From a virus: 39,631 nt of DNA. Positions 13,068-24,974 of the stretch are shown here, in pieces. Numbering within the stretch: the stretch's first letter is position 1; each line of letters starts with the position of its first letter. The DNA is taken from positions 1-39,631 of IMG/VR virus record IMGVR_UViG_3300043470_001260, one strand, 5' to 3'. Under the pieces are notes generated by a model. The model had not been told where the DNA came from. It saw only the letters and a program-made list of their open reading frames with translations, and searched no databases. A program made the position numbers and the translations under genes.

Positions 13068-13473
13068 CATTATGCCTTGGTGGGCAAAAATCGGCTTAAT
13101 TGTGGCCATTGTTTGGTTAGGAATCGCTTTGGTAAACAAAACGATAAGTAACATTAAAACAAGAATTACACACGCTCACGAGGATTATAAATCTATCCAA
13201 GCATCGGACAGTTTAAAAACTTATTTGCTTGGTAATTGCGTAAATTTGTCCGATTCGTTACAAATGCAAAATGCAAATCTGGACGAAAAAATAAAATCTG
13301 ATAGTTTGATGTTTCGAAGTATAAACCAAGCCAATCAAAAAACAATGTTAACGCTAAGCAGGCAAAACGCTGAATATAAGAAAAACGGTGCTTGCTTTGT
13401 TTATGAAAAGGAATGGTTTTTAGGCAAGCGAAAATTGGTTGAAATTAGTTGCGATAGTTTAATCAGGAAATAG
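13048..13473 (+). CDS. Spanin-like membrane-anchored coiled-coil protein
   Basis: 141 residues from ATG 13048 (an in-frame ATG at 13072 would start MPWWAKIG). One N-terminal membrane anchor (IGLIVAIVWLGIALVN) is followed by a periplasmic helical region (SDSLQMQNANLDEKIKSDSL), then a short C-terminal region with two cysteines. This is the layout of an Rz-type inner-membrane spanin. It is last in the lysis unit and is followed by a strong terminator. No separate outer-membrane spanin is obvious; the lipoprotein at 9633 is a distant candidate. Confidence 0.5.
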   Translation: MRFPRINIMPWWAKIGLIVAIVWLGIALVNKTISNIKTRITHAHEDYKSIQASDSLKTYLLGNCVNLSDSLQMQNANLDEKIKSDSLMFRSINQANQKTMLTLSRQNAEYKKNGACFVYEKEWFLGKRKLVEISCDSLIRK

Positions 13474-13492: not shown

Positions 13493-13520
13493 CCTCTCGA
13501 ATTTTCGGGAGGTTTTTTTT
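13493..13520 (+). terminator. Intrinsic terminator of tail/lysis operon
   Basis: CCTCTCGA (13493-13500) pairs with TCGGGAGG (13505-13512), 8 bp with one G-U, loop ATTT, followed by eight T. It sits between the convergent lysis and integrase genes; the T run overlaps the integrase stop codon. Confidence 0.9.
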
Positions 13521-14676
13521 AATTATAAAGCTCGCTCATTGAATCGTCTATTTCATCATCTCGCAAATCTGAAAGGTAATTTTCTGTCATTTTAAAGGTG
13601 CTATGTCCTAAAGCCTTTGAAATATGCCGTTTGTCCATTACTACTTTATCCGCATTTGTGGCAAAAGAATGCCGGGCTACATGGGTAGATATATGTTTTT
13701 CAATACCGCAGGCATGGGCTACAATCCTAAGATTTTTATTCATTAAAGCCACAACAGAATCAATATTTTTGTGGGTAACATCAGGCATAAATCGGTCAAG
13801 TTCGGGAAACACAAAGAAAAGCGATTGGCCTTTATATTTATCAATAATATCTTTAATGCTTTGGCTTAATTTAACGCTCACAATCGCTTTTGTTTTGTGT
13901 TGTACTATATTGATGCGGTCGGGCTTGATATCGTCAATCCTAAGCCGTAAAACATCGGAAACTCTCGAGCCATACAAATAATATTGCATTAGAAAAATAT
14001 CCCGTGCAATCTGAATCTTTTTGCCAAATTTTGACAAGTCAAATTGTGCCAACAGTGTAATTTCCTCAACAGTCAATTTTTCTTTTTTTGATTTATGCTT
14101 TTTGGCGGGGTTTTCAATATCAATTCTTAGGTCAAATTCTTTGTTTGCCCATTTTACAAACGACTTGAAAAACGAAATACGCCTAAAAATACTATTTTGG
14201 TTGTTGCCATTCGCTTTGAGTTTACCAACTATCTTCATTACCAAACCATCGTCAATGTCAGTTACATTTTCAGTATTAAAACACGACTGCAGGAAATAAT
14301 AAAATGATCGATATTTTTCGATCGTGCTTAATTCAAGATTTTGTGAAATGTGTACCAAATATCTATCAAAAGCCGAAACCAAGTTTTCATCATTTAGTTT
14401 CTCATCTTCGAAAACATCAGCAGCTTTAAAGTTTTTGTTTTTGGCCAATAAATCAAAGTACCGTTTTTCGTACTTCTGGAATTCCTCCGAAATTAGAGCG
14501 TTTAAGTTAATGTAAGAACCATGCGAACGCTTAACTTTCTTATTTTTGGAATCCCAATCTTTATCAGGTACTTTGCAAATAGTCTTATAAACCGTTTTGT
14601 CCTTTATAACCCGAACCATCACTGGTCTGGTGCCATCGGTGTATTTTTTGGGGTGCAAGTAAATGGATATTGACAC
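13519..14676 (-). CDS. int: Tyrosine recombinase, phage integrase
   Basis: 385 residues. The N-terminus (SIYLHPKKYTDGTRPVMVRV) is the arm-type DNA-binding domain common in Bacteroidetes integrases, a SAM-like core-binding region covers about 95-190, and the catalytic domain holds all expected residues: Arg238 (YGSRVSD), a Lys near 261-263, HVARHSFA with His332 and Arg335, LGHSTFK with His358, and nucleophile Tyr367 (TENYLSDL). It catalyses site-specific integration, and excision with a directionality factor. It lies next to a candidate attP and is transcribed leftward, convergent with the lysis genes. One of the small HTH proteins at 16121 or 16773 may be the excisionase. Confidence 0.95.
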   Translation of the reverse strand: MSISIYLHPKKYTDGTRPVMVRVIKDKTVYKTICKVPDKDWDSKNKKVKRSHGSYINLNALISEEFQKYEKRYFDLLAKNKNFKAADVFEDEKLNDENLVSAFDRYLVHISQNLELSTIEKYRSFYYFLQSCFNTENVTDIDDGLVMKIVGKLKANGNNQNSIFRRISFFKSFVKWANKEFDLRIDIENPAKKHKSKKEKLTVEEITLLAQFDLSKFGKKIQIARDIFLMQYYLYGSRVSDVLRLRIDDIKPDRINIVQHKTKAIVSVKLSQSIKDIIDKYKGQSLFFVFPELDRFMPDVTHKNIDSVVALMNKNLRIVAHACGIEKHISTHVARHSFATNADKVVMDKRHISKALGHSTFKMTENYLSDLRDDEIDDSMSELYN

Positions 14677-23678: not shown

Positions 23679-23881
23679 AATACGACAGAGCGAAATTCGG
23701 TGAAAAATTGTACATTGAACGCCGAAGGAAGAAATTAAGCCAGCAAAAAATGGCGGATATTCTTGGAGTAAGCCGTGCTACTTTAAGTAGCTACGAAAAT
23801 GGAAAGTTCGACATGAATATGGAATCATTTTCGAAGCTTTGCAACGAGGTAGGCAAAACACCAAACGAGATATTACTCTAA
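23675..23881 (+). CDS. XRE-type HTH protein
   Basis: 68 residues, a complete XRE fold: IERRRKKLSQQKMADILGVS, RATLSSYENGKFDMN, MESFSKLCNEVGKTPNEILL. Last gene of the recombination operon; the structured RNA region begins directly after its stop. It may repress early genes late in infection. Confidence 0.8.
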   Translation: MKYDRAKFGEKLYIERRRKKLSQQKMADILGVSRATLSSYENGKFDMNMESFSKLCNEVGKTPNEILL

Positions 23882-24403
23882 ACATCAAGTCCGAGAGACC
23901 TTTTTTGCAGACGGTTAATCTCGGACACGATAACAATTTCACCTGAATTTTTTGGGTGCGATTGCAACAAGTCGGAAACGACAATAAAGTTCTTTAAAAG
24001 CATTAACCGCAAACCAAATGCGAAACAATCAGAGGGGGAAATCCGAATAGTTATAGGGCGAAAGTACGCTGATAGCTAATACCAAGTTAGCGAGGTTTCA
24101 AAGTTGGGTGTAACTTTCACGACACTTGGAAATTTCTTTGCGGTTGAAAAAATGGTCAGGTGGCGGATGGAGACGCAGATAGACCACTGAGTATTGGGAC
24201 ATTGTTGGAGTGTTAAGCTATTATACCGCACTATCAAAGGGTTAATGAGATAGAAGAAGGATGTCCTCACCCGTTCGATTCGGGTCTTGACCGCAAAATT
24301 TATTAATCACCAGGCACTAAGGCTTTGAAAGAGTGTCGTGTGTGAAATAAATTTCTTTTTAATATAGGGTTCATGTTGAATTAGGGGAGTTGATAACTCC
24401 CCT
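23882..24403 (+). ncRNA. Putative ~500-nt structured RNA ending in a terminator
   Basis: 522 bases with no convincing gene. Complementary pairs on the + strand: GTCCGAGA 23889-23896 with TCTCGGAC 23919-23926; GTCG-GAAA-CGAC at 23971-23982, a GNRA hairpin; AACCGCAAA 24005-24013 with TTTGCGGTT 24137-24145, 9 bp, on which GAAAT 24038-24042 with ATTTC 24132-24136 stacks; inside it an irregular ~11-bp hairpin 24047-24076, and CCAAGT 24092-24097 with ACTTGG 24124-24129 enclosing AAAGTT 24110-24115 with AACTTT. Then a tRNA-like domain (24154-24293), GGCACT 24313-24318 with AGTGTC 24332-24337, and a terminator. No promoter box is seen, so it may be cut from the end of the recombination operon transcript. 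I do not recognise the class; GOLLD and ROOL phage RNAs are the nearest known idea. Confidence 0.6.
24154..24293 (+). ncRNA. tRNA-like domain with expanded anticodon loop
   Basis: Acceptor GGTCAGG (24154-24160) pairs with CTTGACC (24286-24292) over 7 bp with one G-U. Then T8-G9 and a class II (Leu/Ser) D-arm GCGGATGGAGACGC with G18-G19, a 5-bp anticodon stem GATAG (24178-24182) with CTATC (24231-24235), and a perfect T-arm ACCCG-TTCGATT-CGGGT (24269-24285). G at 24293 would be the discriminator, as in tRNA-Ser. No CCA is encoded. The loop between the anticodon-stem halves is 48 bases instead of 7, and the variable region is 33 bases. It is not an ordinary functional tRNA: a decayed or intron-bearing tRNA, or a tRNA mimic within the larger RNA. 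Confidence 0.55.
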
Positions 24404-24410
24404 TAATTTT
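24384..24410 (+). terminator. Strong intrinsic terminator after the structured RNA
   Basis: GGGGAGTT (24384-24391) pairs with AACTCCCC (24395-24402), loop GAT, followed by TTAATTTT. It ends the early operon/RNA and insulates the lipoprotein gene. A weaker 4-bp hairpin with T run lies at 24344-24360. Confidence 0.85.
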
Positions 24411-24430
24411 CAATATTTAAGCCATTTTAG

Positions 24431-24438
24431 TACATTTA
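24431..24438 (+). promoter_or_regulatory. Possible promoter of the lipoprotein gene
   Basis: TACATTTA matches TANNTTTG at 7 of 8 positions, 20 bases before the ATG and just after the terminator. It contains the TTTACA half-site. A good -33 element is missing. Confidence 0.35.
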
Positions 24439-24458
24439 CAAAAAAAATCTATTTCAAA

Positions 24459-24974
24459 ATGAAAAAATTAATCGTTCTCAGCTTATTCTTGGTCGGATGT
24501 GCCAAGCCGCAGATTTTAACACTAAAAGGCAATTACAATGCCTTTCACCAAAAGGAGATAAACAAACCATTTGATCAGGTTTGGAGCAATGCAATGGATA
24601 TTCTCGCTCAAAAAGGTTTGGCTATAAAAACAATTGACAAAGCGTCTGGTATTATTATATCTGAAAAGATTAATTTCAAAGACACAGCAGTTACAGAAGA
24701 CGCACTCGGGCAGCCATTAAGTCCAACGGCTTACATCGTGACACAAAAAAACATTAATTTCCTTGGAGACACCATGGTGCCGACTTCTGTTATGGGAAGT
24801 TGGAATATCAGAATTAAACAATCAGAAACACCGGGCAAAACATTGGTAAACGTCAATATCGTTGGCCTTGATGCAAAAATAGTTTTTGGGGTGAGTAACA
24901 TACCAGACGCAATATTTCAAGCACAAAGCACGGGAGTATTTGAGAAGGCATTAATTGCAGAACTTGAAAAATAA
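24459..24974 (+). CDS. Lipoprotein, probable lysogenic or exclusion factor
   Basis: 171 residues from ATG 24459 (upstream in-frame starts lie in the terminator). MKKLIVLSLFLVGCAKPQ is a lipoprotein signal with LVGC lipobox. The mature part (NKPFDQVWSNAMDILAQKGL, then TIDKASGIIISEKI) recalls BamC/NlpB-like helix-grip modules in small envelope lipoproteins. The gene stands alone between two terminators, with a possible promoter of its own, as accessory genes expressed from a prophage often do. A role in superinfection exclusion or envelope change is plausible but inferred from arrangement and location. Confidence 0.65.
   Translation: MKKLIVLSLFLVGCAKPQILTLKGNYNAFHQKEINKPFDQVWSNAMDILAQKGLAIKTIDKASGIIISEKINFKDTAVTEDALGQPLSPTAYIVTQKNINFLGDTMVPTSVMGSWNIRIKQSETPGKTLVNVNIVGLDAKIVFGVSNIPDAIFQAQSTGVFEKALIAELEK

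What the first reader, a model, noticed from the sequence alone, without database searches (positions are those of the whole stretch)
24154..24293. tRNA-like domain with a 48-nt anticodon loop
A 7-bp acceptor stem, a class II D-arm with GG, a perfect 5-bp anticodon stem, a textbook T-arm with TTCGATT and a Ser-like discriminator G are all in the right order, but the anticodon loop is 48 bases and the variable region 33. Either it is an intron-bearing or decaying tRNA, or the phage has built a tRNA mimic into the larger RNA, possibly for RNase P processing, charging or decoy use.
Basis: partly seen in the sequence, partly recalled or inferred. Interest (0 to 1): 0.75.

Follow-up and report, generated by a model that had tools for sequence, protein, structure and literature searches.

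The report
Phage tRNA-like RNAs without anticodon arm
This phage carries a structured RNA whose tail folds like a transfer RNA but lacks the part that reads the genetic code, and it belongs to a large, apparently undescribed family of such non-decoding tRNA-like RNAs in phages, in which a constant tRNA frame holds a different insert each time.

Summary
The tRNA-like element is real: acceptor stem, D-arm, T-arm and discriminator lie exactly at 24154-24293 (0.03 such hits expected per window by chance). The "5-bp anticodon stem with a 48-nt loop" is not supported: that stem is chance-level, and an 8-bp arm next to the T-arm folds better. There is no anticodon arm.

Twelve distinct relatives share a ~265-nt, covariation-supported 5' RNA domain. 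At the same point after it, each carries a tRNA-like element, built on at least three different tRNA backbones. None has a normal anticodon loop; one has lost the whole arm. Over eight homologues acceptor and T-stems pair 96/96, with changes on both sides in 11 of 12 pairs. Decay, introns and attachment sites are therefore excluded or very unlikely.

Acceptor, D- and T-arms and C74 are near-constant; centres are hypervariable, up to seven unrelated centres in one phage. Rfam and the papers searched have no such family.

Best reading: a non-decoding tRNA scaffold, processed and protected as a tRNA, carrying a variable RNA payload. Anatomy is shown; processing and function are inferred.

The parts
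23885..24147 (+). Conserved 5' RNA domain (~263 nt), closed at its 3' side by an 11-bp long-range helix TTAACCGCAAA 24003-24013 / TTTGCGGTTGA 24137-24147; hairpins 23889-23926, 23934-23964, 23971-23982
   Evidence: 12 distinct homologues; RNAalifold 71 pairs, 8 with changes on both sides; 99.6% of cells paired, covariation above all shuffles and slides; indels of 1, 8 and ~40 nt exclude coding
24148..24153 (+). A-rich leader AAAAAT, ending in U(-1), between the closing helix and the tRNA-like domain
   Evidence: sequence; -1 is T in most family members
24154..24293 (+). tRNA-like domain, acceptor strand 1 to discriminator G73, followed by C74 at 24294
   Evidence: strict scan, 0.033 expected; pairing conserved in relatives
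24154..24160 (+). acceptor 5' strand GGTCAGG (pairs with 24286-24292 CTTGACC)
24163..24176 (+). D-arm GCG-GATGGAGA-CGC with the GG needed for the elbow
24177..24195 (+). 19-nt linker where an anticodon arm would be
24196..24267 (+). long arm 24196-24203/24260-24267 beside the T-arm (class II variable-arm position), part of the element-specific centre
24269..24285 (+). T-arm ACCCG-TTCGATT-CGGGT
24286..24294 (+). acceptor 3' strand CTTGACC, G73, C74
   Evidence: C74 in 242 of 245 family members
24296..24354 (+). 3' hairpin AAATTTATT/AATAAATTT enclosing GGCACT 24313-24318 / AGTGTC 24332-24337
   Evidence: L009 has GGTACT/AGTACC: one change on both sides, one G-U to G-C
24383..24410 (+). intrinsic-terminator-like hairpin AGGGGAGTTGATAACTCCCCT then TAATTTT

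Best explanation
The element is the tRNA-like domain of a phage non-coding RNA and cannot decode. The RNA is read from 23885 to the terminator near 24403: a 5' structured domain, the tRNA-like domain, a 3' hairpin. The tRNA-like domain keeps what enzymes that recognise tRNA shape need (the 12-bp acceptor/T stack, the D/T elbow, U(-1), N73-C74) and lacks the anticodon arm. Inferred: host RNase P cuts at 24153/24154, giving the 5' domain a defined 3' end just after its closing helix, and the tRNA 3' pathway plus CCA addition mature the other end. The result is a stable tRNA-like particle whose centre is an exchangeable structured payload. In the wider family the same frame occurs as separate short genes, several per phage with unrelated centres, like natural tRNA-scaffold RNAs. 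Shown: anatomy, conservation, exchange of domains, absence of an anticodon arm, family, promoter-like boxes for some members. Inferred: processing, CCA addition, stability. Not known: what the 5' domain and the payloads act on.
For: 5' domain conserved and covarying, followed by a tRNA-like element in all 12 distinct relatives. Elements at that point use different tRNA backbones: Leu-like GGTCAGG, class I TCCCGGT/TCCCGAT, GGCTAAG; shared are the acceptor/T stack, elbow motifs, U(-1) in most, and C74, i.e. shape rather than one amino-acid identity. 96/96 acceptor and T-stem cells paired, 11/12 pairs with changes on both sides. L009 lacks the whole anticodon arm. Family: 87 of 97 elements found by D-arm, and 73 of 77 with a scorable D-arm of 105 found independently by the 3' half, lack a canonical anticodon arm; 245 distinct elements, C74 in 242, lengths 53-190. 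Real tRNAs of two Tenacibaculum phages also have C74 without CCA, so the 3' signal is shared. Some centres are shared between phages (L034/L078/L146; L040/L093 and L050/L123/L147, read). L043 has seven elements with near-identical arms and unrelated centres. The Bacteroidota -7 box TAnnTTTG ends 4 nt before several elements.
Against: No transcript, 5' end or 3' end was observed. The window itself has no clear promoter before 23885 (one search covers only sigma-70-type sites; no TAnnTTTG seen by reading). The L005-type element has an imperfect acceptor (5 of 7) and L004a has an 8-nt T-loop and no GG in the D-loop. A long arm beside the T-arm is significant over the family (Fisher p = 8e-5) but in only 11 of 69 centres individually, so many centres may be unstructured. 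No antisense match of the window's centre was found (longest 11 nt, as in shuffles), so a target for the payload is not supported.
Confidence: 0.5

Rival explanations
1. Decoy or trap: the element binds and occupies a tRNA-binding host factor (a synthetase that ignores the anticodon such as LeuRS or SerRS, EF-Tu, RNase P, the CCA enzyme, or a defence toxin that acts on the acceptor end).
For: The parts such factors bind (acceptor, elbow, C74) are the conserved ones; many members have Leu-like D-arms and A73; several copies per phage would raise dosage.
Against: Backbone and discriminator change (G73/A73; Leu-like, class I) within one RNA family, so no single synthetase fits. A pure decoy needs no hypervariable, partly structured 40-140-nt centre. 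Anticodon nucleases would need an anticodon loop.
Confidence: 0.25
2. Decaying tRNA genes: remnants of phage tRNAs that lost the anticodon arm.
For: A few copies are imperfect (L004a, L005 type); at least one member in L189 still has a Lys-like anticodon arm, so descent from true tRNAs is likely.
Against: Acceptor 7/7 in 77 of 87 elements without conditioning on it, changes on both sides in 11 of 12 pairs, C74 in 242/245, compensatory changes in some centres. Decay would hit acceptor and T-stems too.
Confidence: 0.08
3. Intron-bearing tRNA: the centre holds an intron that is removed to leave a normal anticodon arm.
For: ARAGORN with introns allowed can force fits.
Against: Forced fits give a different, implausible anticodon each time; 19 of 245 members have centres under 24 nt; L009 has no room for an anticodon arm; no group I or II intron is found by Rfam; self-splicing introns of 31-50 nt are not known (own knowledge).
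Confidence: 0.03
4. tmRNA-like function: the element acts in ribosome rescue, the centre being a short message.
For: tRNA-like domain with a large insert; ARAGORN in tmRNA mode proposes a weak permuted tmRNA for L004b/L026b only.
Against: No tmRNA hit for the window; the D-stem is kept, unlike in tmRNA; centres have no common reading frame or tag, and some are about 20 nt.
Confidence: 0.04
5. Integration or recombination leftover (attP or tRNA fragment).
For: The phage has a tyrosine integrase; temperate phages often carry tRNA pieces.
Against: The integrase gene is about 10 kb away (13519-14676); both tRNA halves are present with an insert; the position after the 5' RNA domain is fixed while tRNA type changes; many family phages carry several copies.
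Confidence: 0.03

Closest known systems
MALAT1/mascRNA and MEN-beta/menRNA (tRNA-like 3' modules cut by RNase P)
   Same: A long non-coding RNA ends in a tRNA-like module that sets its 3' end by tRNA processing (own knowledge; titles and abstracts).
   Different: Eukaryotic and nuclear; different sequence; here the module is exchangeable and its anticodon arm is missing or replaced; processing not shown.
GOLLD and ROOL RNAs
   Same: Large structured phage RNAs of unknown function near or containing tRNAs; [quoted passage not shown]
   Different: No Rfam match to either; smaller (~520 nt); the tRNA part here is non-decoding and at the 3' side.
tmRNA
   Same: Acceptor and T-arm of a tRNA with a large insert in place of the anticodon arm.
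   Different: D-stem present, no tag frame, no Rfam match, centres not conserved.
Tail tRNA-like structures of plant RNA viruses
   Same: Viral RNA mimicking tRNA shape (reviewed in PMC5723415, listed).
   Different: Those are 3' ends of RNA genomes; these are RNAs encoded by DNA phages, some with a promoter-like box of their own.
Theta ribozymes next to phage tRNAs (PMC10879173)
   Same: RNA elements tied to maturation of tRNAs in phages, mostly of Bacteroidota, whose tRNAs rarely encode CCA.
   Different: Theta ribozymes flank real tRNAs; they are not tRNA-like.
Canonical phage tRNA genes (RF00005)
   Same: Acceptor, D- and T-arm sequence and C74; some family members score just above the family threshold (33-40 bits, threshold 29).
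   Different: No 5-bp/7-nt anticodon arm with U33 in about 98% of members.

Membership tests
tRNA (RF00005) | 7-bp acceptor, T-arm with TTC motif, D-arm with GG | tested here: met
tRNA (RF00005) | 5-bp anticodon stem with 7-nt loop and U33 | tested here: not met
   5 of 245 family members have one
tRNA (RF00005) | called by standard tools | tested here: not met
   ARAGORN; Rfam for the window
tRNA (RF00005) | aminoacylation and decoding | not testable with these tools
   needs biochemistry
tmRNA (RF00023) | tag reading frame, stemless D-loop, model match | tested here: not met
   D-stem present
GOLLD / ROOL | match to the Rfam covariance models | tested here: not met
   no match up to E = 10 for 23850-24480
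MALAT1/mascRNA-like processing module | RNase P cut at the 5' side of the tRNA-like module | not testable with these tools
   only indirect signs: U(-1), acceptor/T stack, elbow
Phage anticodon-arm-less tRNA-like family defined here | [A/G]GTCAGG-type acceptor, Leu-like D-arm, T-arm, C74, no canonical anticodon arm | tested here: met
   The window differs by G1-C72 and T-stem ACCCG/CGGGT; L034 has the family's 5' half and the window's 3' half, and its centre is shared with family members L078 and L146

The most novel reading that the evidence does not exclude
A new class of phage RNA: natural tRNA-scaffold cassettes. A constant tRNA frame without anticodon arm is processed and stabilised as a tRNA and displays a rapidly changing RNA payload (effector, bait or guide); phages carry arrays of them with different payloads, and in this phage group the cassette also forms the exchangeable 3' end of a larger structured RNA.
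Probability: 0.4. Interest if true: 0.9.

Novelty: new variant of a known kind. Interest (0 to 1): 0.78.

Why it matters
Phage genomes appear to hold a large class of tRNA-like genes that do not decode and that the tRNA caller tested here misses or mislabels: ARAGORN gave about 17 of the fetched elements arbitrary anticodons. If the constant frame is a processing and stability scaffold, these are natural counterparts of the tRNA scaffolds used in biotechnology and a new route by which phages make stable regulatory or anti-defence RNAs. If they are decoys, they point to host factors or defences that act on the tRNA elbow or acceptor rather than the anticodon. Both readings can be tested in a Bacteroidota host.

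Tried and rejected
Rfam at gathering and at E <= 10: nothing relevant for the window. blastn of the whole RNA against isolate phages and of the 5' domain against plasmids: no match. The genome-contig scan with a 17-mer of the 5' domain gave 6 matches in unrelated bacteria, none with the domain by nhmmer. A pattern with the window's exact D-arm found nothing. ARAGORN with introns or in tmRNA mode gives only forced, inconsistent fits. Antisense search of the window's centre against the phage: chance level. Neighbour genes: no constant partner; terminase large subunit directly downstream in 4 of 38 distinct cases, small subunit upstream in 2 of 47, so a packaging role was considered and not adopted. 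The AGTCAGG family was not found in isolate phages (no record covered with both arms); 'tRNA-Undet' genes of Tenacibaculum phage pT24 are a different thing. A first pair-count alignment held L005-type rows with one base counted twice; it was discarded and redone without them.

Full report
Setting. The window is a 39.6-kb virus contig (IMG/VR record) of a temperate tailed phage: integrase 13519-14676 (-), RecT-like protein, exonuclease, an XRE regulator ending at 23881, then 580 bases without a convincing gene, then a short protein from 24459 (lipoprotein-like by reading), an anti-repressor and the terminase genes. Its large terminase is closest, at 54% identity, to Flavobacterium phages, so the host is probably a member of the Bacteroidota.

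The observation. A strict scan for a 7-bp acceptor, a T-arm with TTCRANN loop and a D-arm with GG finds only 24154-24292 in the window; 0.033 such hits are expected by chance. The anticodon stem is not: it is found in 18-69% of shuffled centres, competes with a nearby hairpin, and costs 5 kcal/mol against a fold with an 8-bp arm beside the T-arm.

Relatives. Searches with neighbouring genes and with short patterns found 12 distinct copies of a ~265-nt domain just upstream. It contains indels of 1, 8 and about 40 bases, so it is not coding, and its predicted structure has changes on both sides in 8 of 71 pairs (for example GCTAAT/GTTAGC to GCCAGT/GCTGGC), with 99.6% of cells paired. An 11-bp long-range helix closes it directly before the tRNA-like element. 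This domain matches nothing in Rfam.

What follows the domain changes from phage to phage but is tRNA-like every time. The window, L002, L025 and L034 have Leu-like elements with different centres. L004 (identical L024) and L026 have two in tandem, the second with an insert in the D-loop. L009 and L015 have a class I backbone, and L009 lacks the anticodon arm entirely (58 nt). L005, L006, L010 and L019 have a third type with a short anticodon-like hairpin, a base other than U before the putative anticodon, and a weak acceptor. None has a standard anticodon arm. Over eight distinct homologues (one from the distant relative L008), acceptor and T-stems pair in 96 of 96 cells with changes on both sides in 11 of 12 pairs; elements were partly recognised by these arms, so the 100% is somewhat favoured, the double changes less so. 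The flank after the element holds a further hairpin with a compensatory change between the window and L009, then a terminator-like hairpin.

The wider family. Of 97 distinct elements, 87 lack a canonical anticodon arm; 77 of these 87 have 7/7 acceptor pairs although acceptor pairing was not required. The elements that do have one are mainly ordinary tRNAs with other acceptors. A second scan by the 3' half alone gave 105 elements with an AGTCAGG-type partner and 10 without one by the strict rule; 73 of the 77 with a scorable D-arm have no canonical anticodon arm. Pooled, there are 245 distinct elements of 53-190 nt; 5 have an anticodon arm with U33, 19 have centres under 24 nt, 242 have C74. 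C74 without CCA is also seen in the true tRNAs of two Tenacibaculum phages. Both scans fix part of the sequence, so constancy of those parts is by construction; the other half is not.

In several elements the Bacteroidota -7 box TAnnTTTG ends 4 nt before the first base, so these look like transcription units that start about at the first base of the tRNA shape. Other elements follow a covarying hairpin TGAC-(A/G)-GCTCG-GAAAGA-CGAGC-AACAY (15 cases, 0.26 expected).

Centres. They are hypervariable in length and sequence, but some recur in unrelated phages: L034, from the window's own RNA family, shares its centre with L078 and L146 (alignment; by inspection an outer stem and an inner hairpin are kept by compensatory changes). 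By inspection, L040/L093 show GATAAC/GTTATC against GGTAAC/GTTACC in a likely pseudoknot, and L050/L147 show GTCTAA/TTAGAC against GCCTAA/TTAGGT. A long arm beside the T-arm is enriched overall (Fisher p = 8e-5) though individually significant in only 11 of 69. L043 carries seven elements within 5 kb with near-identical arms and unrelated centres.

Interpretation. What stays is what RNase P, the 3' maturation and CCA enzymes and EF-Tu recognise (own knowledge of these enzymes); what is lost is what decodes. Replacement of the backbone at one fixed place argues against a role tied to one amino acid. The most likely mechanism is a non-decoding tRNA scaffold processed by host tRNA enzymes; in the window this would separate the 5' domain from the tRNA-like particle. 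Processing was not observed. The decoy rival uses the same anatomy and needs biochemistry to separate.

Novelty. No Rfam family and none of the papers found describes it (open-licence PMC only, so a description elsewhere cannot be excluded). It is filed as a new variant of tRNA-like RNA, not as a tRNA, since the anticodon arm was tested and not met.

Noticed in passing
L043, L068, L078, L119, L125, L128, L152, L160, L180, L202, L213, L258, directly 5' of tRNA-like elements: Recurrent hairpin TGAC-(A/G)-GCTCG-GAAAGA-CGAGC-AACAY with covarying stem, 15 cases against 0.26 expected; possibly a processing element or small ribozyme.
   Followed up: partly
L072, L101, L106, L117 upstream of tRNA-like elements: A second recurrent leader, ACAACACAGAGGACTTCTCATCCTCAACAT (hairpin GAGG/CCTC).
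   Followed up: no
L008:3380-4190 and L008:6775-6840: A distant relative of the window's phage has its own ~800-nt non-coding region with a 218-nt Leu-like element, and a reduced tRNA-like element just before the small terminase gene.
   Followed up: partly
L004:4170-4320 and L010:6350-6484: The stretch after the first tRNA-like element is similar between these two phages (TAGCAAGG...AGGTTTA...) and may be another structured RNA.
   Followed up: no
L046, L047, L096, L144: tRNA-like element within about 50 bases of the large terminase gene, in some phages between the two terminase genes.
   Followed up: partly
L189, element at 13101 (-): A member with the family acceptor but a standard anticodon arm reading UUU (Lys-like): a possible link to real tRNAs.
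   Followed up: no
L004:4321-4473 and L026:1604-1756: Second element has a ~35-nt insert in the D-loop instead of the anticodon region.
   Followed up: no
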